A stretch of DNA of 64,000 nucleotides from Ophiocordyceps camponoti-saundersi (nom. inval.) (taxonomy: Eukaryota; Ascomycota; Sordariomycetes; Hypocreales; Ophiocordycipitaceae), in the NCBI GenBank assembly GCA_003339415.1, contig PDHQ01000022.1, positions 211,725 to 275,724 of the forward strand, in the 5' to 3' direction. Position numbers and translations under genes: made by a program. The first letter of the stretch is position 1, and the number at the start of each line of letters is the position of its first letter. Below, piece by piece: positions 22,430-52,075 of the stretch. Under the pieces are notes generated by a model. It was not told the DNA's origin, did not search any database, and worked only from the letters and a program-made list of their open reading frames with translations.

Positions 22430-25400
22430 CTATGCCTTTGACTTCAATGTCCATATTCCCCTGCCGGAGCCGCCAATCTTTTGAAGCACCGCTACACGAT
22501 CCAACGCCGTTTTGAATTGGTCACTCTGCTTCTTTCCAGGACAATACGGATTGAAGTGATCCACCAACATCTTACTGGGCACCCGTCCGCCGTGCCGCTC
22601 AATGAAGGTCTTGATCATAGCGGCAAAGTCCTTCGACTTTAGTTTTTTATCAACCGAGGGCGTTCCGGAGCGGGAGCTGCTGCCGCTGCCTGCGTCCAGA
22701 CCTTGACGCTCGGCCAAGTTACTCATGATGGCGGCCGAGCCGGGGCCGCCCCGCCGGCGATTCACACCGCCACGTCCGCCCGAGCCGACCTCTCCAGTCC
22801 AGGTCACTGTGCCGATGGGCATGCGGCGGGCGTCCTCTGCCGATCTTCGAAGATGGGCTGCCGCCTGGCGGGCCACCTCGTTGGCCTCTTGCCGAAGAAC
22901 GCCTTCGTCTGCCTTTGCCTTCTGCGGGCCGTTGACGATCTGTTCGTGGTCGTATGCGCTATTGACCGATCGCGCGAATATGCCCTCCAGCATCCGCTTC
23001 TCGTCGTGTACAGACCTATCTTCTCGATAGTCCTCCATTGTGGCGACCGTTTTCATGTGTCGGAGCTCTCGCTGCTCAGCGTCTGCCTGCAATTTGGTAA
23101 GTTCACCGGCCGCGTTAGCTAGTTTCACTTCGGCGCCTTTAAAGACATCGCTTCGCTCAAGAGCAGCGTCTTTTCCGGGGTTGTAGCTGAATAGGTCATA
23201 CAAGTCGGATAAGTCGTATGAACTTCGTTGCTTAGGGTCCTTCAAAACCTTATTCGTCATGAACTGCTTGAAGATCTGCCGATGATAAATCTTCTCTTCA
23301 ATCGTTCCCTCGGTCATCAGACGATAGATCTTGACAGGCTTTTTCTGACCCAGCCTCCAGGCCCGCTCTCGAGCTTGCAGATCAGTAGAGGGATTCCAGT
23401 CTGGATCAAATATGATGATGCGATCGGCGCCCGTGAGGTTAGTTCCCAGTCCTCCCGTACGCGTTGTCATCAGGAAGACGTGTATAAGAGGATCTGTGTT
23501 GAACTTGTCAATCATCGATTGTCTTTGGTCCACCGGTGTCTCTCCATCCATGCGTAAGTAGGTAATGCTGCACTGCCTGATGCATTTCTCGATGATGTTG
23601 AGCATCTGCTTCCCTTGCGAAAAAAGCAACATCTTGTGGCCGTTCGGAATCATGACTTTCTGCAGCAGGTCTTTCGTAAGCTGCAGCTTGGCAGAAAGCT
23701 TCGGACTTCCAAAGTCGTAACCAGCCTTGTCCGATAGACTCTTGTCCAGAAGGTCTGGATGGTTACATATCTTGCGCAGAATGTCGATGCCATAAAGGGA
23801 CTGACGCCTTTTGCTTAGGATGGCAGAGACTTCGTCGGACTTCAGAAACGTCTCGTACGCATCTCGTTGACCTTCCGTCAGCTTACAGAACAACACTTGC
23901 TCTGTCTTTTCGGGCAAATCTGCAGCCACGTCAATCTTGAGCCTCTGCAGTAGATACTCGCTAATAGTCTCCTTCAACGCCTCGGCGCACTTCTCAGCCG
24001 TCATGACTTGCAGGTTGGATGCGTTGGCGTAGCCTCCCTGCCGGATCGGTATCTCGAACTGGGACCGAAAGTTGACGAGCGTTCCCAGGCGCATGGGGTA
24101 GGTGAAGTCGAAGAGAGACCACAGCTCCGTCAAATTATTTTGCACTGGCGTCCCGGACAAGATAACACGATTCGGGGTGTTGAGCTCTTTGCAAGTGACC
24201 GTAATCTCAGCATTCGGGTTTCGAATCTTGTGACCCTCGTCCAGCACTGCGTATTCCCACTGCACGGGTAGCAACTCGTCCGCGTATGTCTGCAGGCCGG
24301 TGTAAGTGGTGACGAGGACGTGTCCCTTGTCGACAACTCCCTTGACGATTCGTCTGGCAGCGCCCAGAGATCTTCTCCCAACGGGACGACGATACTCAAA
24401 GTCGTAGTCGTCCTCCATTTTCGGGTTCAACATGCCACTACCTGAAGCGTGCAGAATCGCAACCCTCAAGGGTGGCCACCAACGATGAAATTCGCTCACC
24501 CACTGCCGAAGCAAGGTAGCCGGCGCAACAACGATAACGGGGCGCTTGAGTTTTTTGCTGCAGTGTAGGGCAGCAATGAATGCAATCAGCTGCACAGTCT
24601 TGCCGAGCCCCATTTCATCGCCAATGATGCCACCAACGCTTTGCTTATAGAGCTCAGCCAGCCATTGAACACCAGTCTTCTGATAGCCGAACAGAGAAGG
24701 ATGTATGTCGCCGGGTAGCTTCAAGTCGTCGCTGAAGTGGTAGTCGGGGTGGTCAGGTGAAGGCTTGTACCACTCCGCTTCCTCCGATTCACTGTTTTCA
24801 TCAGGACCGTCTGGGTTTTTGGCACGTCGACGACCTTGTCTGGCCCGGCTCCTACGGGCAACCCAGTCGGCCAGTCTCTTTTGGTAGTATGCTTCGTTCC
24901 CATCGTCAATCTTGCTCAAGTCGACTTCCTCCTGCTCTCCGACCTCAGCTCTGGCCTTTCTTTTTCGACGCTCTTCGCGTATTAAGTCGACTTCCGTTCC
25001 TTGTTGCCAGATGGCGGACTTTCCAAGGTATTCAGAGCCGGACGATTCTTCGGCATCAGGCTTTGCCGACGGTCTGCTCTCGTTTTGGAGTCGCCGTCTT
25101 TTGCGCGAGCGAAGGGAGAACTCGGATTCCACATCCAGCGTCGGGGTATCGCTAGCATGCGCTTCACACTCGTGGTCAAAGCCGGGGCGCCGAAGCGATT
25201 GGTGAGACGTCGGCCCCTCAGCTTCCGCATCAAGTCCATCGGCTGCACGTTCTTCTTCGGCATCAAGTATTGTGTCGGCCAGCTGCCCCTGTAGATCATG
25301 AGGGCGAGGGCCTCCGACTTTGGTAAATGGAGTAATTCTCCCTATGCGTATGAGATATTCTCGGTGGCCTTCACCAGGAAGCCGTTTTGACTTGGTCAAG

Positions 25401-25879
25401 TTGGCAGTCTCCAAGGGGTCCTCTCGATGTCGTTTGTCGATGCGGGCCTCGAAGTCGGATATGTCGTTGTTGAGTCGACGAATTTCGTCATCAAGCTTCG
25501 ATATTTCTGCTTGCAGCTTTCGTGACTGATATGGGTTTCCGGACACTTGCAGTAGTTTCCTCTTTTCTTCGTCCAGCTGGAGCTGAAGACGCTGTTTCGT
25601 AGTCTCTAGTTTCTCGATTCGCTTCTTATCTTTATTGTCTTCCGCTTCCATTAGCACTGCATTCGCCTTCATCGTGATGTCTCGTTCCAGGTCGTCCTGG
25701 TCTCTGACAGCGCCCGTCAGTTTCTTCAGTGCATCCTCTTCACTCATTCCGATCGTTGGCGATTTTGGAGCTTCCATCGCAGAGGAGGATGCGCCATGAG
25801 CAGCCGCAACGACCCTGTTGAGAAGGTTCTCACGGCTCTCGACAGAGTCGCTGCTGACTTCATTTTGACCGGAGGCCAT
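22430..25879 (-). CDS. RAD26: Rad26/CSB (ERCC6) SWI2/SNF2 repair ATPase
   Basis: Single long exon, 1149 aa. Seen: an N-terminal coiled coil (about 60-150), an acidic/basic linker, then the Snf2 motor: Walker A DEMGLGKT at 421-428, DEGH at 547-550, SGTPVQNN, and the C-lobe with MTTRTGGLGTNLTGADRIIIFDPDWNPSTD and arginine finger ERAWRLGQ. Followed by KQFMTNKVLKDPKQRR-type Rad26/CSB signature and a C-terminal winged-helix-like end. CSB/Rad26 binds stalled RNA polymerase II and starts transcription-coupled nucleotide excision repair. Lack of introns in a 3.4-kb gene contrasts with its neighbours. Confidence 0.94.
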   Translation of the reverse strand: MASGQNEVSSDSVESRENLLNRVVAAAHGASSSAMEAPKSPTIGMSEEDALKKLTGAVRDQDDLERDITMKANAVLMEAEDNKDKKRIEKLETTKQRLQLQLDEEKRKLLQVSGNPYQSRKLQAEISKLDDEIRRLNNDISDFEARIDKRHREDPLETANLTKSKRLPGEGHREYLIRIGRITPFTKVGGPRPHDLQGQLADTILDAEEERAADGLDAEAEGPTSHQSLRRPGFDHECEAHASDTPTLDVESEFSLRSRKRRRLQNESRPSAKPDAEESSGSEYLGKSAIWQQGTEVDLIREERRKRKARAEVGEQEEVDLSKIDDGNEAYYQKRLADWVARRSRARQGRRRAKNPDGPDENSESEEAEWYKPSPDHPDYHFSDDLKLPGDIHPSLFGYQKTGVQWLAELYKQSVGGIIGDEMGLGKTVQLIAFIAALHCSKKLKRPVIVVAPATLLRQWVSEFHRWWPPLRVAILHASGSGMLNPKMEDDYDFEYRRPVGRRSLGAARRIVKGVVDKGHVLVTTYTGLQTYADELLPVQWEYAVLDEGHKIRNPNAEITVTCKELNTPNRVILSGTPVQNNLTELWSLFDFTYPMRLGTLVNFRSQFEIPIRQGGYANASNLQVMTAEKCAEALKETISEYLLQRLKIDVAADLPEKTEQVLFCKLTEGQRDAYETFLKSDEVSAILSKRRQSLYGIDILRKICNHPDLLDKSLSDKAGYDFGSPKLSAKLQLTKDLLQKVMIPNGHKMLLFSQGKQMLNIIEKCIRQCSITYLRMDGETPVDQRQSMIDKFNTDPLIHVFLMTTRTGGLGTNLTGADRIIIFDPDWNPSTDLQARERAWRLGQKKPVKIYRLMTEGTIEEKIYHRQIFKQFMTNKVLKDPKQRSSYDLSDLYDLFSYNPGKDAALERSDVFKGAEVKLANAAGELTKLQADAEQRELRHMKTVATMEDYREDRSVHDEKRMLEGIFARSVNSAYDHEQIVNGPQKAKADEGVLRQEANEVARQAAAHLRRSAEDARRMPIGTVTWTGEVGSGGRGGVNRRRGGPGSAAIMSNLAERQGLDAGSGSSSRSGTPSVDKKLKSKDFAAMIKTFIERHGGRVPSKMLVDHFNPYCPGKKQSDQFKTALDRVAVLQKIGGSGRGIWTLKSKA

Positions 25880-26420
25880 CGTGGGAGAAAAGGCGCTCTG
25901 AATGCGCGGGAGGCAGAACTAGAAGCTTTGAACCCAGTGATGGATTATCTTGAGGCAGATTGGGGACCTCCAGCTGTCAGGTTTCATAGGTAATTTGGCA
26001 TCTTCGCAGAAGAGGAACGTGACGTCTCGTGGGCTGACGTCAAGGAGTCGTTCGTGAGTCACAAGAGTGAGAGGTTGGTTTAGGAGGGGCTGGAGGGTCG
26101 TTGTGTGGTCAAACTCTGGTGATTTTTTCCCCCTCTCGACTCGGAAAGGAGTCTAGATTTGGTTGGAGTCGCAAAGAGAGTCGGAATACCCAGGAAAGCA
26201 TCTCTCGCACATGATTTGCACAGACGATTCTCGAGTCTTGTCCCTGAGCAGGTTGCCGATCATCGATGATTAACTAATTACCGGATAGAGATGATAGAAT
26301 AGAGAAGGCGGTGAGATCGCGCCTTGCGTTTTGCCGCTTTTCATGCATCGCCCCACTATGACCTCACGTCAAATCTATGTACCTACGTACCTAGGCTAGC
26401 AACATTGACATCAACGCTCC
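25880..26420. promoter_or_regulatory. Divergent promoter, RAD26 / interrupted SET gene
   Basis: 541 bp of normal base composition between RAD26 and the orphaned start codon of the SET-domain gene. Contains the dispersed GTACCTACGTACCTAGG motif near 26,380-26,396. Plus-strand frames here show no homology I recognise. Confidence 0.45.
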
Positions 26421-26439
26421 ATGGGCCATGCGAAGCCCA
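26421..26439 (+). pseudogene. 5' fragment of the interrupted SET-domain gene (start codon side)
   Basis: ATGGGCCATGCGAAGCCCA: codons 1-6 plus one base (M G H A K P). Its last eight bases GAAGCCCA recur as GAGGCCCA at 36,104-36,111 on the far side of the transposon block. Joining on a single copy of that duplication puts this ATG in frame with the SET reading frame (total 603 nt, divisible by three). This is the basis for treating it as the displaced start. Confidence 0.6.
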
Positions 26440-26441
26440 GC

Positions 26442-26483
26442 CATCCCTTTGAGTGCGTTAACGCCGCATTCTTTATACCGAGA
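26442..26483 (+). repeat. Left terminal inverted repeat of outer transposon
   Basis: 42 bp beginning CATCCCTTTGAGTGCG and ending TATACCGAGA. GC content is far higher than in the element interior, so the ends escaped much of the mutation. Confidence 0.85.
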
Positions 26484-27723
26484 TAGGGATAATAGCTAAT
26501 AAAACGCTAGGAAATAAAAAATATATCTATTTATTAGCAAATCTTACTATAATAAAAGTATTAATAGCTAGGCGCTATATATATCGCGACCTTATATATA
26601 CTATAGCCTTTCTTAGTCTTTTTTAGTATTTTCTAATTAAGGGTATTATTATTAGTATCGCCTAAAAGCTTTTTTTAACTATAAGAGTAAGGCTAGCTAG
26701 CTTTAAAGCTTTAGTAAGGTATATAAAATAAGCTTTTTAAGTAATTAACGTATTAATATTATAAAATAAGGGAAAATACGTTACTAATACGAAAATATTA
26801 CCTTAAAATACCTTTTTTTACGTAAGTATTATAAACTTCCTTTATAATTTATTACCGCTAATCTTACTAATTTATTATATACTATTATTAAAGCTACTTA
26901 CGAAGCTATAGAAGATAGCTATTTATAAGCGCTATTTTAAGAAAAAAGCTTTACGTAATTATATATTAATTTCCTCTTTAAACGCGGTATTCTAGCCTTT
27001 CTAAGGCCTTAAGTTAATTACTAATATCGATAGCGCTTATCTAATTATTATATTTAGCTATAATAGATAATATAGAAACTCTTTTTATTAGCTTATTATT
27101 AAAAAAATATAAGATTAAGCGTATTTAAGGTTATATAATTATCGGCTATCGATAAATACGCTTTTTAAATTCGGACCTTATAAAGATTATAAAAAATAGA
27201 AAAATAAAAGCGTTATCTTTCTAAGTAATTTAATTTACCTCTCTATTAAGCGTAAGCTTTATATTAATTTAGCCTTAAGGTTAATATTTACTTTTTATAT
27301 TATCTTTTTTAGCTTTAATAAAGCTTTTAAAAATATTATAGTTAAGGCGGTAAGTGCTTATTATACTATAGCTAAAGTAGCGTAAAGCGTAGAAAAGCGC
27401 TAGTAATAAGAAAAAGTTATCTAAAAAGATATAATATATCTAAGCTAATAGTAGATTTATTAAGGAGATAATAACGCTTTATATTAGGTTTAAATAAATC
27501 GGTTCTTTTTAACTTATTACCTTTTTCTTTTTCCTTTTTATTATTAGCTCTAAGGTATTATTTAGCGTATACTAAAGCTATTATAAGAAGAAGCTATCTT
27601 AAGCTATAATTTAAACCTTAAAGCTTATAAATATAAATTTCGTAAAAATCGTAATTATCTTACGGGATTTTTCTATAAAGCTAATAATATATTTATTAAT
27701 AGCTAGAAATATATTAAAACTAT

Positions 27724-28023
27724 TATTAAGGGACTAGTTAAAGAGGTGCTTATTTATTAAGCTATATATAATAATAATTATATATAACGAGCTTCTAAGG
27801 AAGCCGCACTCTAGCGTGCTAAATAGCTATATATACCGCTCTTTCCTTTAGAGCCTATTTACCTCCCTATTTAACTATCTTTTCCGTTCTATTCCTTCTA
27901 ATCTTTCCGCTACGGGCCTCTAGGCTAGATAGCGGCAGCCTTATCGTTTAATTATAAGGCTAATCCGTAAGTTTAACGTTTAAGTTAATAACCCGAATAT
28001 AATATAAGAGCTAGACCTTAATA
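27724..28023 (-). repeat. Left LTR (3' LTR in element orientation)
   Basis: 300 bp. Shares long blocks with the right LTR, e.g. around CTACGGGCCTCTAGG and ATAACGAGCTTCTAAGGAAG; the differences I checked are mostly C/T or G/A transitions. Confidence 0.9.
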
Positions 28024-31000
28024 TAAGGTCCCTCCCCTTACTTATAAGCGCGGGATCTATTATATAATATATAGTAAGGTTAAGTAAAAAATTTTCCGCT
28101 AAGTTACTTAGTCCGCCTTACTTTTTTATAGCTTTTATAGTACTTACTTATTAAATCCTTTATTCCTTCCCTTCTTCCTTCTATAGCCTTATCGTTATTA
28201 TTATTAATATTACTATTATTACTATTATTAGTAAAGGAATCCGCTACCTATTTTATAAGTTTAACTATACTAATATTTTCTTACTTATAGGGATATTTTA
28301 GCCTAGCGAATATAATAGTTATCTTTAAAACCTCGCCGCCGCCGCCTCCTCTATTATTAATTCTACTACTACCGCTACTACTAATATTACTACTAATAAC
28401 GATAACGATAATAGCGATAATAATAGCGATAACGATAATAATAATAATATCGTAGGTAATAATAAAGGCCTTAGTTTAAAGGAGGATTTCCTAGCTTTTA
28501 ATATTTAGTTCGAAAAGCGTTATAGCTATAAGCTAACTTAGGGGGGTTATCGTTACTTTAAGCCTCCTCCTCCTCCTCCTTTTTTTTCTTTTACTTCTCC
28601 TCCTCTTTTATTTTTTAATATAAGTTTTTTCCTCTTTTTACTTAGCGGCTTACTATATAGGATTTATCGATCCCGTATCTAAAAGGGCGATTTACTTATC
28701 GTAGAGAAACGCGCTACTAACGTTATCGGGTATTTCTTAAGTTACTATACGGAGAAGCTCTTAGCTTAGAGCCCCTTACTAGCTCTCCCCTTCTCCTTCT
28801 CCTCCTCTTATTATAGTAAATCCTTATCCTATATCTAGGAGGGCGATTTATCTATAATAGGCGTTCGCTAATATTAGGTTTTTCGTAGCTTACCTTACGG
28901 AAGAAGTCTCGGGCTAAGATTCCCGCCCCTACTCTTACCCCCGCTCCCTCTCCTCCTCCTACCCTTACCGCTAACCTTATTAACGAAGAAGATAATAATA
29001 AGGATAAGGATAAAAATAAGGATAGTTATAATAAGGGGGCCTTTCGGGAGCCTTTATATCTTTATTATATAAAATAAAGTTATAAGTATTATAATTAAGC
29101 TATAACGCTAAGGCGTATAAGGAAGTAAAAACCTTATATATCTTATATAAAATATATACCTTTATACTAAACTTATATACTTACCTCTTAGCTTTTAGTT
29201 TTAGCTTATATAGCGTAGTATATTACCGCTAAAACTAAGCTACTACCTAAAATAATAATAAGGGCGGATAATATTTTTTAAGCGTTAATTACTATTACTT
29301 AAGCCTTAACGATATTAGCTAAGCTTAAGCTTATATATAGCGATATTTCCTTTATTATATAGTTAGTTTCCTTAATCTTATAATACTAAACGCGGAAAGC
29401 TAATTTCCTTTTTTAGGGAGTATATTAACGCTATCCTCGATATCGCCCCTTTTTATAAGCTTTCGGGCTTTAAAAAGTTAGCTAATATTTTAATATTAGA
29501 GGAAAAGGTTACTATTTTAAAGCGTAACGCTATTATTACCGCCGCCGCCGCACTTATTACCGCCGCTACTAAACTAATAACCTTAACGCTATTACGCCGC
29601 CGCTATTACTTAGCTAGGGAGTTATTATTTATAAAGAAGTAGCGCTATTAAATATTATAAGGGGGGGGGGGGGTATATTTTCCGCGCCCGTTAATACGCT
29701 TTTTAATATAATCCCGCTACCGGCTATTTTACCGTACGTTTCTTAATAACCTGCCTATTATTATATATAGCCGGTTCGTATAAAGCTTTAAAGTAATTAA
29801 AAGCGGCGGTGCCCTTAAGTTTTACTAAAAGTTCCTATATTAAGTTTTAATAACCCTTTTATTTAATAAAAACCTCCTATCTCCTACCTTTACTTACCTT
29901 TTTCTATTTAGCTAAGATAATTTTTTTAACTTCCTATTCTTCCTCCCTATTAATTAGTATCGTAAGAGGCTATAAATTAGTAATTTCTTATCTAAGTAAG
30001 GGGTCTAAAGCTACCCTTTTAAGTAAATTTATATTAAAGCAATTATAAGCTTTTATTAATAATCCTATAAATTTAATAAGGGAAGGGTTAATAACCCGCG
30101 CTATTATAAACTTAGCGTTCTTCTAATCGAGCTTCTTTTTAGGCCTTACGCTAGGAAAATTACGTAAATTAAGCTAAACTTTATCGCTAATTTTAAAGCG
30201 CTCGGCCGCTTATCGATTCTTATTAGCTTAAAACTCCTAAGTTTATAAGAATAAAATATTAGTAGCTTAATATAAGTTTATTACTTATTATAATTATCTT
30301 ATAAATTCCTTAGCCTAGCTTTTAGGATTCCTTATTAATAATTACGGAGTATTTAAGTTTAATAATATTATCGTTAAAGCTTAGAACTTATAAGTTACGA
30401 AGAATAGCGTTATTCCTATAGCTAAGTAAACTCTATTATTTAGTATAAGCTAAGCTACGGGAAGCTATTTATCTTAATTATCCTAATTATAAGAAATTAC
30501 CGCTTAGAGGTAAGCTTATATATTTTAATTAACCCTCTTATATCCTCTATTAATTTATAAATAATAAGCTATATTAAATATTTAATTAATCCTATAAAAT
30601 TAGTAAAGATAGCTTTAGAATTCGCTTATTTAGTTAGTTTCTTTATTACTTATAATAATACTTAGCTATTAGTAAAATTATATAAAATATTAGAGAAACC
30701 GCTCTATATAAAGCGGAGCGTTTATTAAGGGTATCGGCTTAAGTAGGATTTCTTTACTAAGGCGGTCTTTAATTACCTATAAGTGCTTATTTCCGCGTTT
30801 TATAAGCGGGAAGTCTATTATAAAATCTATTTATATATATTAGTAAAACTAATCTAAAGTAAGTAATAACTTAAGAAGGGTAGCCTAATATTATTTCTAA
30901 GCTTTAGTCTTACCGTAAGTATTATAATTCCTAAGGAATTAATAAACGTATTATTATTAAAGTAGCTAGAAAAAGTCGCGGGTTATAAGGGCTACTATAC

Positions 31001-34000
31001 TTTCCCTCCTAAAATAACTAACTAAGGCTAAGTTATAAATTATTTAGATAAGATAATTCCGTAATATATTAAGTAAAGAGGCTAGTACCTTCTTAAAATC
31101 TTTTATTATAATAATTAAAGCTCCTAAAACTTAAAGCTTATTACGGAAACGTAGTTTTCTTTTAGCGTTAATATAGTAATCTATAATTTAAACTTTAAGT
31201 TATAGCTTTAAAAGTAATAAGCGGTCTCCTCTTACTATAGCTTAGTATATTTCCTAGAAAACCGAGTCTTATAATATTATCTTATTCTAAAGTTCCTAAA
31301 GCTTATTATTAGAGAAAACTTAAGTTTTTAGTAAATTATAATTTTATAAATTTATAGCGTTTTCTATAGCTATATTTACGTTTTATTATCTATCTTCGCC
31401 TTCCTCCTTTTCTAAGATATTAGTAAGGTCCTTAGAAATATTAATTATTATCGCTTATAGGTAGAATTATAAAGCTTTTTCGGGAATTATTTATATAAAG
31501 TAAGCGTCCTCCTCCTCCGTAATTAAAAGTTTATCTTAATCTTTACGGGAAAGGGCGTCTAGGACCGCGGCTTATTTACTAAGTTAATAATAAATCTTAA
31601 AGTTAAATCGTAATAAGTACTTAGCCTAATAAGCTTATCGTTCTAAGAGGTACCGGCGAGTTATAAAATATTTTAAGTTTTTATAATTAATAATAATATC
31701 GAAGCTATTATAATTACGTAGTTTAGCGTATTATTATTTTAAGTATCTAATAATTACTAATATCTTTTTATTATATATTAGATAGTTATATTCGGCTACG
31801 TTTATTTTTACGGAAAAGAACGCTATTAGTTATTTCTATCTTTCTCGTTCCTAGTAAAGATAACCTCCTATAATATAGGCGCTAATATTTACTTTTAAAA
31901 ATATAAGGTCCTTAAAGTTTTATTCTATTAATAAAGGGGCTTTTATAAATAGATTCTTAATTTCCTAGAAGGCTTATTCTTAATCCGGTCCTTAGACGAA
32001 TTTTACCCTTTTTTTCGTTAGATTTATTAATAATTCTACTACTTTAGTAAAATCTATAATAAAGAGTTAGTAGAAATTAGTAAAACTTAGGAATCCGTAA
32101 AAGCCTTTAAAGGAAATTAGCGTAGCTTAGTCGATAATTATCTTAATCTTTTCCGGGTTTACTTAAAGCTTAACCCTTATTAATATTATAAATTCTAAAT
32201 ATTTTACCTTTTTAACTACGAATTCGCACTTATCTAAGTTTAAATAAAGCTTATATTTTTAAAGCTTACGGAGAACTAAGTATACTTTACGGAAATAGTT
32301 TTTTTAATACTATTAAAGTAAATAATAATATTATTAATATAAGCTAAGTAAAACTTATTAAGATATAGCTAAAAGATATTATTAATATATTTCTAAAAGG
32401 TAATAGGAGCTCTTATAAGTTTAAATAAAATAACTATTTATTTAAAAAAGCTATATTAGGTTTAAAATGCTATTTTCTATTCCTCTCCTTTAGTAATCTA
32501 TACCTTATAGAAAGCTTATATAATATCTAGCTTTATAAGCTATTAAGACTTAGCTAATAATTAAAAGGTATTACTAAGTAAAAGGAGTAGGTATCTATCT
32601 AAGACTATAATTACGTTTAGTATATAGAAATCTATATAAAATTATAATCCTCCCTTAAGTTTCCTTACGAAGAGGATTAAGGTACTTATAAGCGAGCTAT
32701 TAAGTTAAATAAAGCTTTTCTAAAAAAGGTCTTATAATATCTTTTTAAGGATAAGTAATTTCTCCCTTAATATACTATAAAAGGGGCTAAATAAGATTTA
32801 GAGTTTTTTACTATTTATTTTTTTTTTAAGCGGTATATAATAATTTATACCTTTTTTATATAAGTTTAACTTATCCGCTTCCTATTTACGGAAAAGGGGA
32901 AATATATCGTAGAATTCTATTAAGATTTATTCTCGTAATTAGTTATCTATTAAGGGAATCTTATCTTATAACGCTTTCTCTATATTTTTAACTCTTACCG
33001 CTTAGATTTTTAGGTATTTAATAGGGTTTTTTTTCTAATAGCGTAATTCCTTTTACCTCTTTTTTACTTCTCCGATAAAAGTTAAGCTATAAAGGTATAC
33101 CGTATTTAAGATCTCCTTTATTAGTTAAAAGTAAGTACTAGTAACCTATACTTATTATTATAAATCTCCGTATTATACTCGTTCTTCGTAAGGGATTAAG
33201 TAAAATTTTATATATTATAGCTAAAGCTTACTAAAAATAATTAGGAAATTAAAATCTAATATTATATATATTATAATTAATTAACTAAAGCTATTTATCT
33301 TAAGTAAAAGCTAAGCGATACTTAATATTTTTAGTCTACTTATTATTACCTTTTTTACTTATTAAGCTAGGATTCTTTCTATTAGTATTTATAAGTTTTA
33401 TATTAGCTATAAATATATTATAGAATAGCTTTTATAGCTTTTACTAACTAATATATTTATTAGTTCTAAGTTATTTAAAATTATAGGAATTTTAGTAAAT
33501 AGGGCTTATAGTTTAGAATAGAGGATATTTTTCTTTTCCTTTATTTATATTACCTTATCCTCTAAGATACTACGATATCCCGGAGCTATTTTTTCCCTTA
33601 GTTATTATCGGAATTATATTCCTTAATCTAAGGTAAGATTTTTATATAGTTAATATAGGTTTCTCTTAAAGCTTTTTATTATAGCTTTTATAAAAGTTAG
33701 AAATTATAGTTATATATAAGGTATATATTCGTTCTATACCTAATATAAAAACCTAATATTTTACGTTATTCTAATACTAATCTCTTTACTTACTTAGCTT
33801 AAGGGGTATTTCGTAATACCTAAGTAAAAGTCTTATTATAACTACTTTCTTTTCCTTTTAGCTTTTTCTTCTTCTTATCTCTTATCGTATTTATCGGAAT
33901 ATCCCTATTTATATTCTTTCTTATATTTAAGTTTATAAGAATACCCTTAGCGCCTCCTAAGTATTTATTCGGGTTAAGTTAGTATTTTTTAGCCGCCCTA

Positions 34001-35046
34001 AAAAAGCGTAAAGTTTATTTAAAAGACTAAGTAAAACTTTATAGGTAATTAATAAACGGAGAGTATTCGTAAGGTATATTAATAATAACTAGAAAATCTC
34101 GAAATATCGGGGAAAAGGCCCTATATAGCTAAGTTAATTTTACGGAATTATCCTAACCTATAAATCTAATAGTAGTTACTAGGATCTCTTCGAACTTAGG
34201 AATAAAGTTACTAAATATTTATCTATTATAGTAAACTAAAATCCGGAGCCTATTTTAAGCCCTCTTTCGTTTCTAAATATTACTAAAAGTTCGATAAAGG
34301 TAGTTAAAGAAGTCCTTTAAATACCTCTTTTTACTAAAGCTACTAGATTACTAAAAGGCTAATATTTTCTATATTTTATCTTTAGGAAAATAATTTAGGA
34401 TCTATACCTAAATATAATCCGTATTACTAGCTTTATTTTAAAGCTTATTAATATTATATTAGTAAATTAGCTAGCTTATAAAAAAATAAAAGAAATTTAG
34501 CGATTTATTTTACTTAAGCTAAGGTTCTTTTTATCTTATAAGGGCTATATTAATCTAAGCTTAGTTAGGCGTAGCTTTAGTAAAAGTTAATTTAATAGGG
34601 TTTATTTATAATATTTCCTTAAAAGCGTCCGCACGCGCGGCTATAAGTTACTCTATATATTCCGCTTCTTTTATTACGAGAAAGGTTATAGCTTATTACT
34701 AAATAGTAAACTATACTTCTTATAATATAGCTTTTTACTCCGCTTCCTTATTTATAAGAAAGGTATTAGCTTATTTCTTAAAATACTATTTTATATATTT
34801 TAAGATCTATTAATAACGTTCCTCCCTATCCTTTATTATATATTATATTACTTATATTTATTATTTTAATTACTAAACTTATAGCTTTTATTATAAGGGT
34901 TATTAATATCCGCTAAAGCTAGCTTAAGATTACTAAAGCTTTTCTATTTAGTCTTATAAGTTAGCTATTCCGATCTAATTTAATCTAATTAATCTATTAA
35001 TATTAAAAATAAGGGTAAAAGTTTATAAGAAAAAGATACGTAATTC
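28024..35046. other. RIP-mutated interior of the LTR element
   Basis: About 7.0 kb of AT-rich DNA with short GC islands such as CCTCCTCCTCCTCC near 28,560. Apart from the RT fossil and the polypurine tract I can place no gag, protease or integrase domain with confidence. Absence of any open frame of useful length over 7 kb is itself the evidence for inactivation. Confidence 0.8.
32200..32560 (-). pseudogene. Fossil Ty3/Gypsy reverse transcriptase segment
   Basis: Minus-strand translation, ignoring stops, gives the ordered RT landmarks KLDI..AF.KV.I, GEE.K.AF.T.Y, F.KYINNIF, and LNKF.LAYINNIIIY. The catalytic YIDDI box reads YINNI, exactly what G-to-A changes do to GAY codons. Several Trp/Gln positions are TAG/TAA. 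This identifies family and orientation; the sequence is dead. Confidence 0.85.
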
Positions 35047-35346
35047 TATTAAGGGATTAGTTAAAAAGGTACTTATTTACTAAGCTATATATAATAATAA
35101 TTATATATAACGAGCTTCTAAGGAAGCTATATTTTAGTATGCTAAATAGCTATATATACCGCTTTTTTCTTTAAAGCTTATTTACCTCCCTATTTAACTA
35201 TCTTTTCCGTTCTATTCCTTCTAATCCTTCCGCTACGGGCCTCTAGGCCAGATAGCGGCAGCCTTATTATTTAATCGTAAGGCTAATCTATAAGTCTAAC
35301 GTTTAGGTTAATAACCTGAATATAATATAAGGGCTAGACCTTAATA
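35047..35346 (-). repeat. Right LTR (5' LTR in element orientation)
   Basis: 300 bp, the same length as the left copy, immediately followed by the ACTAT target duplication. No clear tRNA primer-binding site is readable next to it, probably erased by mutation. Confidence 0.9.
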
Positions 35347-36060
35347 ACTATATAGCGAAGAAAAAGTATTTTATATATAATTTAATTATTTATTAAGCTA
35401 GCTATAAGGTATATAATAAGTTTAAAAGGGATTAAAAAGTTAAATTTATCGTTAAAGCTAAAAAAACTTATTAAAAAATATAAATTATATAATCGGATAA
35501 ATTAAGAAAAGGCTACTAGCTATTAAAATTTTCTAATAGTCCTAAATTTAAGTTTCCTTATAAATTCCTATATAAATTAAAATTATAATTTAAATATAAA
35601 TTTCTAATATATTTATTTCTTACTATTTTAAATACTATAATCTTTTTATAATAAAACCTTATAGCTTAGGTTAGGGGCCTTAATTTATATAGCTTACCTA
35701 TTTTTTAACTAAGAAAAGTAATAGGAAAGCTTAGAATAGTAATAAAAGCGTAAGCGGTAATAAATAAATATAAAGCTTATAATAATTTAATTAAAAAAGT
35801 AAAAAAGAGGCGCTAAAAAAAAGCTTAGGGGCTAGATTAAGCTAGTATATACTATTTATAGCTTACTTACGCTAATAGTTATCTAGCCTAATAAAAAAAG
35901 CCTTATTAATACTATTAATAGAAAGTATAGATAGCTAGCTTTCTATTACTATTACGTTTAATTGTTTATAAGGCAAAATAGGCGTATAGGTTTTATAGAA
36001 GCTTTTTACGAGAGTAACTATATTATATTTCGTACCTGCAGGCTTAATAAGCTAAGTGGG

Positions 36061-36102
36061 TCTCGGTATAAAGAATGCGGCGTTAACGCACTTAAAGGGA
36101 TG
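36061..36102 (-). repeat. Right terminal inverted repeat of outer transposon
   Basis: Reverse complement matches the left repeat at 41 of 42 positions (CATCCCTTTAAGTGCG ... TATACCGAGA). Confidence 0.85.
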
Positions 36103-36111
36103 CGAGGCCCA

Positions 36112-36695
36112 AGAACTGGCCGGATGGGCTGCCGTATCTCTAGTCGCCATTATTATGCAAAAGTCTAACTCTTGCACAGCTTGAGGCTCTCCGCGTGAGA
36201 CCGGCCTCACTGCCACTCGTTTCGGCCTCCGAAACCGTGACCCCCTCGCCGCGAGTGAAAATCCAACAGATTCGCGATGCTCAGCATCCAGCCAACGGCC
36301 AGATGGGCCTGTTTGCGGCACAGAACCTCAAGCCTGGCACATTTGTCTTGGCATACCTCGGCCGGGTTCATATTGGCGCCCCTTCAAGCTCACATGCGGA
36401 CAGTGACTACGACCTGTGGCTGGATAAGGAGGCCGATGTAGCCGTCGATGCCGCGGTTGAGGGTAACGAGGGCCGCTTCGTCAATGATTATCGAGGTATC
36501 AATGAGAGACCCAACGCCGAGTTCGCCCCTGCCTGGTGTCAGCGCTGGGAGCAAGTATGCATAGGCATCTGGGTTGCAGGAGGGAAGGGCAGCAAAGGCA
36601 TCAGGAGAGGCGAGGAGATTTTGGTAAACTATGGGAAGGGCTTTTGGCAAGAGAGAAGGATCCCTGAGCCCGAGCCGGCGGGTGAAGGAATATGA
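36112..36695 (+). pseudogene. SET-domain protein gene, 5' end displaced by transposon and with in-frame stop
   Basis: The frame reads KNWPDGLPYL, then TAG at 36141-36143, then SPLLCKSLTLAQLEALRVRP and a SET domain: GQMGLFAAQNLKPGTFVLAYLG, FVNDYRGI, and GEEILVNYGKGFW. NWP..LPYL and QLEALRVRP resemble the N terminus of small fungal SET proteins, so the segment before the TAG is genuine coding. A CAG-to-TAG change is the CpA-to-TpA change RIP prefers. No ATG exists between the transposon and the SET domain in this frame; the start lies at 26421. The SET core itself is intact, so expression from a new promoter or start cannot be excluded. Confidence 0.7.
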
Positions 36696-37886
36696 TTGAG
36701 GCAGGGGCATGCTTCTCATGCAGGTAATGCCCTACCTTATAAACCGACCTCTTGCCCTCGCCTAGTCTTTTCACCTCTCCCGTCTTCCCCCCAGCCTCCA
36801 CGTGGGATCGAATCATCAGATGAAACAGGAGACTAGACGAAAGTCTTGCCAGGGTAGCTGCGAGAGGAGAAATTCCAGAGAACGTGACCGATGAGGAAGT
36901 TTTCGGCAGGCAACGAAAAAGCGATAGATGAATCCGCCGAAGCAAAGGAGAATACAAGGCATAACAGTTTGCGTAGCAGAACTTCACTTTTTTCAATTTT
37001 CCTACATTGCGGAAGGTATAGGACACGCAGCTGACGAACAGAGGTCACGAGCTTCAACGACACAAACGTCTTAATGATCCTCTCCTCCCGACAGTAATAT
37101 CTATCTCAACACGGACTCTTCTCGGGCTCTCTCTGCACTTCTGTGTCTCTTTAACATCTTCCACCCTCTATATATCTTCCTCTCTCCGACCTCGTCTTCC
37201 CTTCTTCCCTTCTTTCTCTCTCCAACTTCCTCTTCCCTTCTTCCTCTCTCCAACTTCCTCTTCCCTTCTTCCTCTCTCTTCCTCGCCTTGCACGTCTTCC
37301 TCGCTCTGCAAATTTTCTCCTCTCTACAACTCTCCTTATCTTTCTCGCACCTCTCCCCTCTCTCTTGAATCTGCCTTGTAGATCTGCGCATAGCATCTTC
37401 ATTCAAGCACCTTCTTGCGCCCACAAAAACGGCGTTTTCACTTCACTTCACTTGTCTCCCGATATCTTCCTCTTCTACTCCGATCTCCCTTCACCTCTTC
37501 TCTGATCTCTCAGCTCTTCTTCTTCGACTTCTTTCATCTGTTCATGCAGCCTCGCCGTCAGCTTCAGCAGTCCTATGCTTAGTCTCAGTCAGAGCTTCAT
37601 ATAGCGCCGCAGGCACAGACGTACAACAGTTTCTCGTCTACTCATTTCTCGATATTTCGCCTCGTTCGCCCACGGTTCATTAAACTTCTCCAAGGTATAT
37701 ACTCTTCATGTTCGTCTCTTCTCATACGTTTATCCATTTCCTTTTTCCCTTTGGTTTTGCTTCTCTTTCTTTCTCCGCACCGTCACACTCGTCATCGCTC
37801 ATCCTTTTCAGTTACCTATTCTGTGGTGGTACTTTTTTCGACTGACTGCCCGTTAGAAAAACTGAGAGTCAAAACAGCGCTTCATC
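36696..37886. promoter_or_regulatory. Intergenic region with long polypyrimidine tract and probable 5' UTR intron
   Basis: 1191 bp. From about 37,130 to 37,345 the plus strand is almost entirely C/T, with an internal imperfect repeat of ~30 nt (CTCTCCAACTTCCTCTTCCC). A GTATAT...TTTTCAG pair at 37,695-37,811 would be a 117-nt 5' UTR intron of the downstream gene. No coding frame accepted. Confidence 0.5.
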
Positions 37887-45934: not shown

Positions 45935-48900
45935 ATGTCTTTCGGTAGCAGTGGTTTCGGGGGCTTTGGCTCAAATAACAACCAGGCGTCCAGCGCCTTC
46001 GGCGGCGGCGGCTTTGGCGCGAACAACAACTCAGGTACGGTCGAAAACCCACACTTTCTTCTCACTGTATTAACTTGTGCTGCCAAAGGTTTCGGCTCAA
46101 CCAATACTGGCGGCGGTTTTGGCCAGAATGCAAACACTGGAAGCGGCGTCTTTGGTGGAAATTCCAACACCTCCGGTTTTGGCTCCCCATCAGGTATGAT
46201 TTCTCCCGCATCCCTTCAATCCACCTGGTGATTTGTTTCGTTACATGTGGCTGATCAGGGTTTGTAGGAGGCTTTGGGTCGAACACCGGCGGTGGTTTTG
46301 GAAGCAAACCTGCCTTTGGCACCAGCAACACCACCGGCGGCGGCCTCTTTGGAGCTTCCAACACCAATAATGCCAGCAACACATCTGGCTTCGGCGGGTT
46401 CGGAACTGCGAATAATGCCAACTCTTCTCCCTTCGGAGGTGGAAACGCAACTGGCGGAGGGCTCTTTGGGAACAATGCCAACAAGACAGGCTTTGGTGCT
46501 ACTGGCAGCACCGGCACGTCGCTCTTCGGCGCTGCCAATGCAGCCTCCGGCAGTGGTTTTGGTGGTAGCGGCTTCGGTGCCACGAACAACACTGGCGCAG
46601 CGGTCGGCGATCCTCCTGGCACCGCTGCGACACCCTTCTCAGCGTTCACTGAGAAGGAGCCCAACAGTACCAACCAGTCAAATTCGTTCCAGAATATCCT
46701 GTTTCAGGATCCATACCGGAAATGGTCGGCGGAAGAACTACGACTGGCAGACTATGTTCAAGGTCGCCGTCACGGCAACGCAAGCGGAGCCGGCGCCTTC
46801 GGCGTGAACTCCGGCTTCGGGGGTGGTTTTGGCTCCAACAACCAGACCACGGGTGCCTTTGGCGCCACCTCAAATACCGGCGGCGGCCTCTTTGGGGCCA
46901 GCAACTCGAACAACGCATCCAGTGGTTTCGGTCAGGCGGCGACTGGAGCCTTTGGAGCCAACAATGCCAACACTTCAGGCGGCCTCTTTGGTAATAATAA
47001 TAACAAGCCCAGCGGCGGCCTCTTTGGAAACACTGCAAATCAGCAAAGCGGTGGCCTGTTTGGCTCAGGAACCGGCGGTGGAGGGTTCGGCGCCAACAAT
47101 GCCAACAGTGCCTTCGGCGGCAACAACAGCAACACGGGTGGTGGTGGCCTCTTCGGCTCCAATAACCAGGCGAACAAGCCTCAAGGAACGGGTTTCAGTT
47201 TTGGGAACACCAATGCCAACACCACCACCTCTGCGTTCGGATCAAACACCGGAGGTGCATTCGGCTCGTCAAACACACCAAACTCTGGTCTCTTCGGTGG
47301 CTCGAACAATCAGCAATCCGGCGGCGGCCTCTTTGGCAACAATCTGCAGCAGCAGCCGAATACCAATGCTCCTTTCGGGTCTGCTTTTGGCGCGCAGAAT
47401 CAAAACCAGACCCAGCAGAGCGGCGGTCTCTTTGGCAACAACCAGCAGAAGCCAGCAACGGGCGGCCTTTTCGGTTCGACCGCTACCAACAATACGCCGT
47501 CTGGTGGGCTCTTTGGAAATGCAAACAACCAGCAACAAGGTACCGGCGCCTTCGGCACAAACACCAACACTTCGACGACGGGTGGCCTCTTTGGCGCACC
47601 CAAGCCTACCACCACAACCAGCCTCTTCGGCGCGACCAATACAAACCAGGCAAATACCACCGGTACCGGCCTTTTCGGGGGATTGGGATCCAACACTCAG
47701 ACTCAAGGGGCCACCGGCTCTTCTTTGTTCGGGTCGACGAACAACGCTCAACAGAAGCCCGGCGGCCTCTTCGGCGCTACCAACTCAATCTCAAACGCGG
47801 GCCTTTTCGGAGGCGGAAACAGCCAGAACCAGGTTGGCTCGCTCTTTGGCAGCAGTGCAAACCAGCAGCAGACCCAGGGATCTGGCTTCGGCGGCTCCTT
47901 GCTGGGTAGCACTCAACAAAATGGCAATGCGCCTCAGGGACTTACCGCAAACCTCAACGACGTGTCGGCATATGGCAGTCCGTCTCTATTTGCTGGCCTG
48001 AGCGGCGGCGAGGTCTCCAACCCTGGTCCTCTTGCTACGCCTCTAAACGGTAGCTCGAAACCGCGGAGAAGCTCCATCCTTCCCCTATATAAGCTCGCTC
48101 CTTCAGCCGCGTCGCGACTTGTCACTCCCCAGAAGCGGGGCTTCGGCTTTTCCTACAGCTCTTTCGGGACGCCGGGAGCCAGCCCCGCCGGGAGCATTTC
48201 CAGTACGCCTGGCGCTCTTGGCCGCAGCCTGTTCGGTCACGGCTCGAGCGGCACGCTCAGTAAGAGCATGTCCACGAACAACCTTCGTCGCAGCTTCAAC
48301 ACCGAGGACAGCATACTCGCTCCGGGAGCTTTCTCGTCCAGCTCTAATAGCCGTTGGTATGGAAGTTCGGGCGCGAAAAAGCTGGTCATCAACCGGGACA
48401 TCCGCAGTGACCTATTTTCTACTCCTCAGAGAGATAAGCAACTTATCGACGGCAGTGCCAGCGCCCGCAAGCTTTCAAAGCGTGTCAGCTTCGACACCAG
48501 CAACGTTGAAGCCGAGGACGGAACACCGCTGCGTAATGCGCTTCCGGCTCCGGAGGTTACGCCCAATTCCCAGACAGACGATTCTACCCCTCGTCAAAAC
48601 CGGGTTCCGGCCACCGCCAACGGCACGAAAACGCCAGAAATGGAGCAGATCAAGGGCAACGAGCTGGCAGTCGTTCACGAGGAAGATCATACTGCCACCC
48701 CCGAGTCACCGAACACGCCTGGCCGCGATCAAGCCCCTGGAAAGTACTGGACGACGCCAAACAAGGACGAGCTGCTCAACATGAACAGAATGCAGCGGCA
48801 GAGAATTCCAAACTTTACTGTTGGTCGTGAATACGTCGGCAGTATCACGTTCAAGGTTCCCGTGGACATAAGCGGTATAGATGTCGACGACTTCTGCGGC

Positions 48901-51900
48901 ACTATCGTAGTCCTCGAGCCTCGGTCCGCTACAGTATACCCCAATCAAGCCAAGAAGCCACCAGTTGGCCGTGGACTCAATGTGCCCGCCACTATCATGC
49001 TTGAGCAGTCTTGGCCGCGTGGAGGCCGCGAGAAGCGCGGGCCGAACGACGCCAAACGAATCAACAGGCATATCGAGCGACTTCGGCAGATTCCCGACAC
49101 CACTTTCGAGAGTTATGACGAGGAGACTGGCACATGGGTTTTTACTGTGGAACATTTCACGACCTACGGCCTGAATGATTCGGACTATGATTCAGATGAG
49201 GACGACGATGATCTGCAGGTGATGGAAACTGTGCACGCGGCAGGTTCCCAGGCGGTGTCTCAGGAGCTATCATTCAATCAACTCCGAGGTGGTGGATCTT
49301 TCGACTCCACCGGTAGCATGGGTGTACCGGGTGCTTTCGACAGCCAACAGGAACTGCAGCCCGAGGCTGCTACCGGCGAGCAGCATTTTTTAGGGGATAG
49401 CTCCGCGGATCCAGCGTCCAATACTGTGCAGTTGTCTGTTGATGAGTGCGACAGCAACATGGACGACGGATATGACGTGTCCGAGGATGAAGACACGACG
49501 AGGTCTTCAATCGGGCAGCATCGAGCCGCGGAGCAGGACGAATCCTCGTCAGAGATTGATCAAGAGCCCAAGCGAGGTACGCCTGGCGGCATTCTCAGGG
49601 CCAGAATGCGAGCGATGAAGGAGTCGATCGGGCCGGTGCGGCTCGAGGTAGCTGACGGCGATGACTGGATGAGCATGCTCATCAAGACTGTAAGCCCCGT
49701 CAAGCGTAATCGCCAACAGCTCCTGGAGCAGAACGAGTCGCCATCCAAGCGTCAGCGAACGGGTGATCTCATCAACCTCGATGGCGATGCTGGTCTTGCT
49801 GCCACATCTTCCATCTTTGGCCGGAGCCCGAGCAAGGGAGACAGGGCGCTGATTGCAGGCAACCGGGGCTTTTCTACAAGCATTGACTTGATGAACTCTC
49901 TTTTTCAGAAACCAAGATACTCTAATACAGCCGTCGCCCCATTGTCGACAAAAGGACTTCCAGAGGTATGTACAGGCTTGCAAGGGCCTTGACGCAAGCG
50001 CATGGAATACTAACGTCTACTAGTGGCCTTACGAACGTCAGGGCGAGAGCTTGACTGTTGGCGAAGCTGAGCAAGTTTACCACAACGCGTCACGCCCAAC
50101 GTGGGGACCCGGGGAAACACTGGTGGTGACGCGTTCGCTGTACACTGCGCAAACGTTCAAGAGGCATCGGGGCATTATGTCCTTCCAGCGATCAGGCATC
50201 CAGACGACGCAGCAGGATGTTAGGCTCGCCAAATTTTCCACGGCGGTATGGCGCCCTCCTGTCAGTGTTCTAGCAGGAACACAAGTTCTGACGCTGTCGC
50301 AGCCTTCGCAGAAGTTTCTACAAGCCCAGAGCGACATGACCAAGATCAGCGTCGTCGACGGCGTTCCCATGGCTTCCCTGCACGTCAAAAACCTGCGGGA
50401 CCTCTTTCACCAGCAAGATATGCAGGACCCCGCTAATGTACATGAGGGTCAAGTTTGGGAGCTGGCGAGTATTCTCTTTAACCAACTTAGTTCCCGCGAC
50501 TCGGCAAATGGGGATGACTTGGCGAGAAAATCGAAGTTGTCTCAATTCTGGACCAACATGGTCGAGGCGGCGTCGACAACGAACATTGGCCTGGCGAGCT
50601 GCAGCGAAGAAAGGGTCGTGGCGTGCGTGGCGGGACATCGAATCCAGGAGGCCTGCAAGTACTTACTGGAGGGCAAAAACTTCCGTCTGGGAACCTTGGT
50701 GCCTCTGATGGGCACGAGCGACGAGGCCAAGAAGGAGATGAGGGAGCAGCTCGAGGCCTGGCACGACTCAAAAATGCTGTCCGAGTTTTCGGACGCGACG
50801 CGCACCATTTACGAGCTCCTGAGCGGCAACGCCTGTGTCTGCGAAGGGATGAAAGGAGTTCCCGTCGAGGATCGCATGGACTCATTCGTCATTGCCAAAA
50901 AATTCGGACTGGACTGGCGGCAGTCGTTTGGCCTACGATTGTGGTACGCTATCAACGCAGGAGATGGTGCGGCGGCGGCAGTCAGGATGTTCCAGGAAGA
51001 CCTAGGTCAAGACAGGGAAGATCCGCCACGCCCGTGGTTCATTGAGCAAGGCCTCCTACCGCTATGGGACGACCCGGACGCAGAGAAGCGGCAGGATCTG
51101 CTCTGGGGGCTGTTGCGGCTGTACGCAGATGAGGACGTCGATCTCGAAGCTGTCCTTCGGCCCGAGAACTCGCAGCTGTCTCCGATGGATATGCGGCTCA
51201 CTTGGCAACTTGGAGTGGCTTTGATCTCGACGGGCAAGGTTTCCTTTGGTGAAGGCGGCGCAGAGAAGGCGGACGCATCCACGCTGTCCTACGCGATGCA
51301 GCTGACGGCGGCGGGCGAGTGGCTTGAGGCCGTCTACGTTCTTTTGCACATGCACGACGATAAGGTGCGAGCCAGGGCGATACAGGAGCACCTCTGTCGA
51401 CATGGAGGCCTGATCGGGCCCGAGTCGGAGACCACCTTTTCGACGCTGGTCGATAAGTTCAGTATCCCCGCGAAATGGGTTTGGGAGGCCCGGGCTCTGT
51501 ACATGCGCAGTGTGGAACGCGACGCCTCGGCCGAGGTGCACTGCCTGCTACAGGCCGGGTCGTTCGCAGAGGCACACCGGGTGCTGGTTCAGCAGGTGGC
51601 GCCGCGAGCGATCGTCGAGCGCGACTATGACACTCTGTCGGCTTTAGTGAGCACAATGGAACTAGAGAGAGACTCGATTCCTGGGTGGACGATGGGCGGC
51701 CAAGTTTACAGCAGCTTCCTGGCCATGTTAGAGCACCGAGAGCGAGGCAACATCGTTGCGACGGCGATACTGGACAAGCTACTCGGCAGCCTTAGAGCCA
51801 TGAGCGCCACGGTGGGCGACGACGATGTTGTGGGGTTTGCGGCCATTTCAGACATGGCGGACGAAACGGCGCGGGAGCTTGTGAGAAGGAACAAGGGGTC

Positions 51901-52075
51901 AAAGGTAAAGTACCCTGGCACATACGGCGTGCTCTGCGGCAGCGGGCTGACACAGGGAGAGCAGGACGTGGAAGCTCGGTCACGGATAATGGGGCTACCC
52001 CTGACGCAGGATCGACTGTTGGCCTACTCGGTGGAGTTGGGCATAAATTGCTATCGTGAGGTGATGTCGCATTGA
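45935..52075 (+). CDS. NUP145: Nup98-Nup96 polyprotein (Nup145/Nup189), nuclear pore complex
   Basis: Four exons: 45935-46034, 46089-46193, 46259-49965, 50024-52075; introns 54, 65 and 58 nt; about 1987 aa (1984 with the alternative acceptor at 46267). Seen: dense FG/GLFG repeats over the first ~480 residues, a Gle2-binding (GLEBS) segment near 214-240 (ILFQDPYRKWSAEELRLADY), then the autoproteolytic domain ending WVFTVEHFTTYGL, with the HF|T cleavage site at about 1035/1036. The remainder is the helical Nup96/Nup145C part that joins the Y complex. Self-cleavage would release a mobile FG nucleoporin and a scaffold protein. Key cleavage residues are intact. Confidence 0.95.

What the first reader, a model, noticed from the sequence alone, without database searches (positions are those of the whole stretch)
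26421..36695. A 9.7-kb nested transposon block splits a SET-domain gene after codon 6
ATG GGC CAT GCG AAG CCC A lies at 26,421-26,439. The eight bases GAAGCCCA at its end recur as GAGGCCCA at 36,104-36,111. Joining across one copy gives a 603-nt frame that runs into an intact SET domain, whose N-terminal NWP..LPYL and QLEALRVRP look like fungal SET proteins. Insertion at a start codon region has therefore separated the promoter and ATG from the catalytic domain in this strain.
Basis: partly seen in the sequence, partly recalled or inferred. Interest (0 to 1): 0.75.

Follow-up and report, generated by a model that had tools for sequence, protein, structure and literature searches.

The report
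Transposon nest splits fungal SET gene
In this fungus (closest match: the insect parasite Ophiocordyceps), a nest of jumping genes scarred by the fungus's own genome defence sits inside the start of a single-copy SET-domain gene, which also carries an early stop; this is a clean but ordinary kind of gene disruption.

Summary
Codons left of the block (MGHAKP) match the start of the nearest uninterrupted relative (MGHARPKNWPDGLPYL, Ophiocordyceps camponoti-leonardi), and the gene resumes on the right. The block is a 9,655-bp DNA transposon with 42-nt inverted ends, holding a 7,623-bp Ty3/gypsy-like LTR element. Inside, 23 CA/TG dinucleotides remain where the flank rate predicts about 1,223, as repeat-induced point mutation (RIP) leaves.

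Correction 1: the rejoined 603-nt frame is not open; TAG at 36141-36143.

Correction 2: GAAGCCCA/GAGGCCCA is probably not the target duplication.

The SET domain shows no clear decay (1 departure in 52 near-invariant columns, shared with three closest relatives): the loss is recent, or the 130-aa SET-only frame from 36303 is still used. Mechanistically ordinary; moderate interest.

The parts
26421..26444 (+). Stranded 5' end of the SET gene: ATG GGC CAT GCG AAG CCC AGC CAT (MGHAKPSH); the last AT is the target dinucleotide under the AT model
   Evidence: matches MGHARPK of P0001 apart from an extra 15-nt unit
26427..26441 (+). First copy of the 15-bp in-frame repeat (CAT GCG AAG CCC AGC; in another register GCCATGCGAAGCCCA, 26425-26439)
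   Evidence: sequence; 14 of 15 match to the second copy, which the element splits; chance estimate
26443..36101 (.). Outer TIR DNA transposon with its flanking AT pair; 9,655 bp between the two ATs, 2,027 bp without the inner LTR element and one ACTAT
26443..26483 (+). Left terminal inverted repeat
36061..36101 (-). Right terminal inverted repeat
27724..35346 (-). LTR retrotransposon, Ty3/gypsy-like, inserted into the DNA transposon; RNase H domains read on the minus strand; over 200 stops in each of the six frames of its internal part
   Evidence: empty site in a sibling copy of the DNA transposon on contig C249
27724..28023 (-). LTR (300 bp)
   Evidence: 27 differences to the other LTR, all transitions
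35047..35346 (-). LTR (300 bp)
27719..27723 (.). 5-bp target duplication ACTAT, left
35347..35351 (.). 5-bp target duplication ACTAT, right
36102..36695 (+). Rest of the SET gene: GCG AGG CCC AAG AAC TGG ... to the stop
36141..36143 (+). In-frame TAG, a second lesion, 40 nt right of the element
36303..36695 (+). Frame from the first ATG after the TAG: 130 aa, starting where the Pfam SET match starts; the database entry P0004 has this extent
22430..25879 (-). Divergent neighbour, SNF2-family helicase (1,149 aa); the stretch 25880-26420 stays with it and with the stranded ATG

Best explanation
A single-copy, conserved SET-domain gene of about 200 codons was disrupted by a TIR DNA transposon that inserted at a CATG in the eighth codon of a frame already carrying, or acquiring at the same time, a 15-nt in-frame repeat. 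The insertion duplicated or bracketed only the dinucleotide AT. A Ty3/gypsy-like LTR element then inserted into the DNA transposon, and RIP removed almost every CA/TG inside the block while leaving its outermost ends and the flanks nearly untouched. A nonsense codon 40 nt right of the element is a second lesion. As assembled, no continuous full-length SET frame exists (shown from sequence). If anything is made, it is most likely the 130-aa SET-only frame from 36303 (inferred).
For: Left codons and right frame together match the uninterrupted P0001 (81% identity over 97% of the right-hand piece). In 98 of the 120 listed homologues a simple motif search finds the same W-P...Y-L stretch, in 91 of these within the first 21 residues. 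The SET piece has one match in the own genome (3 candidates scored). Pfam SET 29.4 bits against a cut-off of 22.4. 42-nt TIRs. The outer 22 nt of the TIR have 52 pattern matches in the own genome, against 0 for the reversed control pattern. In 15 of 15 short sibling elements the base outside ATCCC is a pyrimidine and the base outside GGGAT is a purine; none has a direct repeat of 3 bp or more abutting ATCCC...GGGAT. LTRs of 300 bp with ACTAT on both sides and an empty site in the C249 sibling. RNase H domains at 1.4e-12 and 1.8e-9. CA+TG: 23 in 9,577 bp inside against 2,553 in 20,000 bp of flank. (CA+TG)/(AC+GT) is 0.028-0.122 inside against 1.20-1.28 outside. TAG at 36141-36143.
Against: No empty site of this gene at DNA level was available: the uninterrupted state is known from proteins of other species only. 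The 15-bp repeat is absent from P0001 and a two-unit motif was found in 0 of 120 homologues, so it is a further event to be assumed, and an aberrant longer duplication at insertion cannot be excluded. The window's left flank does not have the Y-R-Y context at -2 and -3 that most siblings show (AGCC in the window). A SET gene with 1 departure in 52 near-invariant columns sits uneasily with an old loss. No transposase was recognised in the outer element. The stop rests on one assembly.
Confidence: 0.85

Rival explanations
1. One reading: the element made an 8-bp target duplication GARGCCCA and the gene was split after codon 6.
For: 7 of 8 bases match across the block and the rejoined frame is in phase. 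It needs no extra 15-nt repeat, which no listed homologue has.
Against: 0 of 15 sibling elements show an 8-bp duplication at any end shift from -3 to +4. With these borders the two ends are not symmetric (GCCATCCC left, GCATCCC right). A 7-of-8 match is found in 8.0% of random flank pairs, while the match extends to 14 of 15 in the register of a tandem repeat.
Confidence: 0.1
2. The SET gene is not dead: a shorter protein is made from the 130-aa frame at 36303, driven from the element's edge or a cryptic promoter, and is still under selection.
For: The window's piece departs in 1 of 52 near-invariant columns, and that departure is shared by P0001-P0003; 118 fuller homologues depart 0 to 4 times. 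The frame after the TAG has no other stop. A 130-aa entry P0004 is in the database.
Against: A recent disruption predicts the same lack of decay. By mean frequency of its residues the piece ranks 90 of 120, below the middle of the family. P0004 shows only that a gene caller found an ORF. The native start and the 53 codons between the TAG and 36303 are lost.
Confidence: 0.25
3. The composite was already RIP-mutated when it moved here, carried by its intact ends with a transposase supplied in trans.
For: The CA/TG-poor sequence stops inside the element on both sides; the TIRs keep 3 and 2 CA/TG sites in 41 nt, and the flanks have 17 and 12 in the adjacent 100 nt.
Against: RIP acts on the duplicated stretch and can stop at its edge, which gives the same picture (general knowledge). 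In the C249 sibling the CA/TG depletion also fades near the end of the element. The TAG near the edge would fit leakage after insertion.
Confidence: 0.1

Closest known systems
SET-domain proteins of Hypocreales such as CP532_4520 of Ophiocordyceps camponoti-leonardi (P0001)
   Same: 81% identity over 97% of the right-hand piece; same N-terminus MGHA(R/K)P; 201 aa
   Different: Here split by 9.7 kb, with an in-frame stop and an extra 15-nt unit
ATon elements of Aedes aegypti (PMC3422177; passages seen)
   Same: Non-autonomous TIR elements that insert at the dinucleotide AT, with T inside the A at the 5' end and A inside the T at the 3' end; autonomous partner unknown
   Different: Different organism; no sequence comparison was made; here the flanks are Y and R
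ISL2EU group of PHIS transposons (PMC4482050; passages seen)
   Same: AT target duplication, TIRs
   Different: ISL2EU targets A|AT|T and TIRs usually begin GG; here Y|AT|R and CCCTTT; no DDE_Tnp_4 match in the own genome
Ty3/gypsy LTR retrotransposons
   Same: 300-bp LTRs, 5-bp duplication, RT-type RNase H domains, many LTR copies in the genome
   Different: CA/TG-depleted throughout; RT and integrase domains not recognised, so their order is not established
RIP-mutated transposon islands of filamentous ascomycetes (general knowledge)
   Same: CA/TG depletion, high TpA/ApT, sharp AT-rich block
   Different: Nothing fundamental; the depletion is very complete (about 2% of the flank rate)

Membership tests
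SET-domain protein family (Pfam PF00856) | Match over the curated cut-off across the domain | tested here: met
   29.4 bits against 22.4, profile 2-105 of 105
SET-domain protein family (Pfam PF00856) | Intact coding sequence from ATG to stop | tested here: not met
   Insertion and in-frame TAG
Ty3/gypsy LTR retrotransposon (inner element) | LTR pair with short target duplication | tested here: met
   300 bp each, ACTAT/ACTAT
Ty3/gypsy LTR retrotransposon (inner element) | Pol domains in the order RT, RNase H, integrase | tested here: inconclusive
   Of the pol domains only RNase H was recognised in the CA/TG-depleted frames
hAT-type DNA transposon (outer element, implied by an 8-bp duplication) | 8-bp target duplication | tested here: not met
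   0 of 15 siblings
Tc1/mariner (outer element) | TA target duplication | tested here: not met
   If the ends are placed one base further in, TA stands on both sides in at most 6 of 15 siblings, as a Y-AT-R context gives by itself; the window has CA left and TG right
ISL2EU (outer element) | AT duplication | tested here: inconclusive
   A matching pair AT/AT in 12 of 15 siblings, but AT can equally be the last bases of the TIR
ISL2EU (outer element) | A|AT|T target context | tested here: not met
   Y|AT|R in 15 of 15; the expected context is from passages of PMC4482050
ISL2EU (outer element) | DDE_Tnp_4-type transposase in the genome (family choice recalled) | tested here: inconclusive
   0 matches to PF13359 in the own genome; the control panel rang in 1 of 14, so sensitivity is not shown for fungi
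RIP-mutated sequence | Loss of CA/TG, TpA/ApT raised, (CA+TG)/(AC+GT) low | tested here: met
   TpA/ApT 1.54-1.62 inside against 0.60-0.61 outside; ratio 0.028-0.122 against 1.20-1.28
RIP-mutated sequence | Differences between repeat copies are C/T and G/A transitions | tested here: met
   27 of 27 LTR differences are transitions

The most novel reading that the evidence does not exclude
The insertion and RIP cut off the promoter side of a SET enzyme but left a 130-aa catalytic-domain-only gene that is still under selection: the transposon nest has re-made the gene into a truncated form rather than killed it.
Probability: 0.12. Interest if true: 0.55.

Novelty: new member of a known kind. Interest (0 to 1): 0.32.

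Why it matters
It shows how a fungus with RIP-type mutation can lose a conserved single-copy gene: insertion, nested insertion, CA/TG depletion and a nonsense change can all be read in one locus. It also shows that the target rule of an unclassified family of TIR elements (AT in a Y-AT-R context) can be read from siblings in one assembly, and that a plausible 8-bp 'target duplication' can be part of a tandem repeat. If this species lacks the SET enzyme, it is a natural loss-of-function case for a protein family with 613 database hits; I know of no tested role for that family (recalled; I made no literature search on it).

Tried and rejected
8-bp target duplication: rejected on 15 sibling elements. 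These are the distinct TIR pairs 100-700 bp apart in the loci held; one search listed 52 places and cut loci for 30, so not every copy in the genome was examined. Another copy of the SET gene that could replace it: none found in the own genome. Recognisable transposase in the outer element: six frames of the left arm and six of the C249 sibling (which covers the right arm) gave no Pfam match at 0.1; the window's own right arm was not scanned separately. DDE_Tnp_4 in the own genome: 0. RNA families in the window: 0 at gathering cut-offs. One weak Pfam match in the LTR element's minus strand (YxzE, 17.1 bits against a cut-off of 40) was taken as chance. Species: the closest protein is from O. 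camponoti-leonardi; the genome (45.7 Mb, 733 contigs) is unnamed and I did not settle the species. Paper searches were seen as listings with abstract starts; passages only were seen of PMC3422177, PMC4482050, PMC12730594 and PMC4625970. In what I saw none described this locus or this element family; no search was made for the SET family. The LTR coordinates in my notebook entry and in the script are off by about 12; one search has the right ones.

Full report
WHAT WAS CHECKED. The bases and coordinates in the finding are right. The block between the two gene parts is AT-rich (GC 0.22-0.28 in its three parts against 0.53-0.54 in the 10-kb flanks). It is bounded by 42-nt inverted repeats at 26442-26483 and 36061-36102, 98% complementary.

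THE GENE. The right-hand piece (36147-36692, 182 codons) has a full-length Pfam SET match (29.4 bits, cut-off 22.4) and resembles EHMT2 SET domains in solved structures (best E 1.1e-5). Of 613 database proteins with E <= 0.001 (120 listed), the best is a 201-aa protein of Ophiocordyceps camponoti-leonardi (P0001, 81% identity over 97%), followed by O. unilateralis, an unnamed protein and the window's own 130-aa entry. P0001 begins MGHARPKNWPDGLPYL. The codons left of the block read MGHAKP and those right of it (A)RPKNWPDGLPYL. A simple motif search finds the W-P...Y-L stretch in 98 of the 120 listed proteins, in 91 of them close to the N-terminus; only P0001 begins MGHA. The gene is single copy in the own genome as far as that search shows (1 match). 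In the window the Nup98-Nup96 gene lies about 10 kb to the right. By my count of the listing, 6 of the 120 homologues carry the name of that nucleoporin, which hints at a conserved neighbourhood; I did not test it in other genomes.

THE FRAME IS NOT OPEN. The rejoined 603-nt sequence has a TAG at codon 17. Under the AT model the joined sequence is 618 nt with stops at codons 22 and 206; the early one is 36141-36143. The first ATG after it in frame is 36303, giving 130 aa that begin where the Pfam SET match begins (residue 53 of the searched piece). The database holds this 130-aa protein (P0004).

THE TARGET SITE. A pattern for the outer 22 nt of the TIR had 52 matches in the own genome; the reversed control had 0. 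Loci were cut for 30 of these. Paired ends in the loci held give 15 distinct short elements, 237 to 566 bp, 10 of them 241 bp. One further 373-bp pairing on contig C171 seen shares its left end with a 241-bp element and was not counted. In 15 of 15 the base outside ATCCC is a pyrimidine and the base outside GGGAT is a purine. No element shows a direct repeat of 3 bp or more abutting ATCCC...GGGAT. Over all end shifts from -3 to +4, no element shows one of 7 bp or more; one 6-bp match and a few 4-bp matches occur. If the ends are drawn two bases further in, AT/AT matches in 12 of 15; one base further in, 6 of 15 match, which a TA rule would require of all. So the family inserts at AT in a Y-AT-R context, either duplicating it or carrying it as its own ends (all). 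The same reading in the window gives left ...AGCC-AT-CCCTTT and right AAAGGG-AT-GCGAGG. Most siblings also have purine at -2 and pyrimidine at -3; the window's left flank does not. The right side with its AT and a C gives CAT GCG AGG CCC AAG, i.e. HARPK, residues 3-7 of P0001. The left side then carries one extra unit of 15 nt, and GAAGCCCA/GAGGCCCA is part of a 15-bp repeat, GCCATGCGARGCCCA (14 of 15 match). No listed homologue shows two units (0 of 120), so the AT model must assume one more event. Whether the 15-nt repeat preceded the insertion or arose with it cannot be told without an empty allele.

THE BLOCK. Inside the outer element lies an LTR element, 27724-35346: LTRs of 300 bp, ends TATTAAGG...CCTTAATA, target duplication ACTAT on both sides. 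Its empty site is seen in a sibling copy of the outer element on contig C249. RNase H domains of reverse transcriptase are recognised on the minus strand (1.4e-12, 1.8e-9), which suggests Ty3/gypsy; other pol domains were not recognised and the pol order could not be established. The LTR had 40 scored matches of 176 candidates in the own genome, the two in the window included. The two LTRs differ at 27 of 300 places, all transitions. CA+TG dinucleotides number 23 in 9,577 bp inside, against 2,553 in 20,000 bp of flank, a rate that would give about 1,223. RIP is the established cause of such a pattern in filamentous ascomycetes (general knowledge; abstracts on RIP in Ophiocordyceps appear in the listing). 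The TIRs and the flanks are not depleted in the same way: 3 and 2 sites in the 41-nt TIRs, 17 and 12 in the 100 nt next to the element. Without the LTR element and one ACTAT the outer element is 2,027 bp. It has one long but diverged left-arm relative (C705, 68%) and one right-arm relative (C249, 81%), besides short matches. No transposase was recognised.

ORDER OF EVENTS (inferred). Outer element into the gene; LTR element into the outer element; RIP over the repeated parts. The nonsense change cannot be placed in this order. RIP before arrival is not excluded.

STATE OF THE SET DOMAIN. Against 119 homologues (P0004, the window's own, left out) the window's piece departs in 1 of 52 near-invariant columns, and that departure is shared by P0001, P0002 and P0003. 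The 118 fuller homologues depart 0 times (80), once (27), twice (10) or four times (1). By mean frequency of its residues it ranks 90 of 120, below the middle but within the family's range (all). So the domain shows no clear decay. Recent loss and continued use of a truncated frame both predict this; the test cannot separate them.

COMPARISON. The outer family resembles in its ends the AT-inserting TIR elements called ATon in Aedes aegypti (passages of PMC3422177), and shares AT with ISL2EU. It fails ISL2EU's A|AT|T context and usual GG ends as described in PMC4482050 (passages), and no matching transposase family was found. It is left unclassified. The inner element looks like an ordinary RIP-mutated LTR element.

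VERDICT. Interest 0.32.

Noticed in passing
G000 contigs C199, C255, C171, C332, C465, C722 and others (L009, L010, L035, L045, L058, L062): A family of short (mostly 241-bp) non-autonomous TIR elements that insert at Y-AT-R; unclassified, no transposase recognised
   Followed up: partly
G000 contigs C88, C90, C111, C162, C199, C233, C465, C497, C529 (places): A second subfamily with ends close to ATCCCTTTGGGTGTGGTAACGCC and a spacing of about 260 bp
   Followed up: no
window 46804-52075: Nup98-Nup96 gene about 10 kb right of the SET gene; 6 of the 120 listed homologues of the SET protein are named as that nucleoporin, perhaps a naming error from this neighbourhood
   Followed up: partly
window 29661-29673: A run of 13 G inside the CA/TG-depleted LTR element, where the assembly may be uncertain
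   Followed up: no
window 37160-37300: Pyrimidine-rich, tandem-like stretch (CTTCCTCTTCCCTTCTTCC...) right of the SET gene
   Followed up: no
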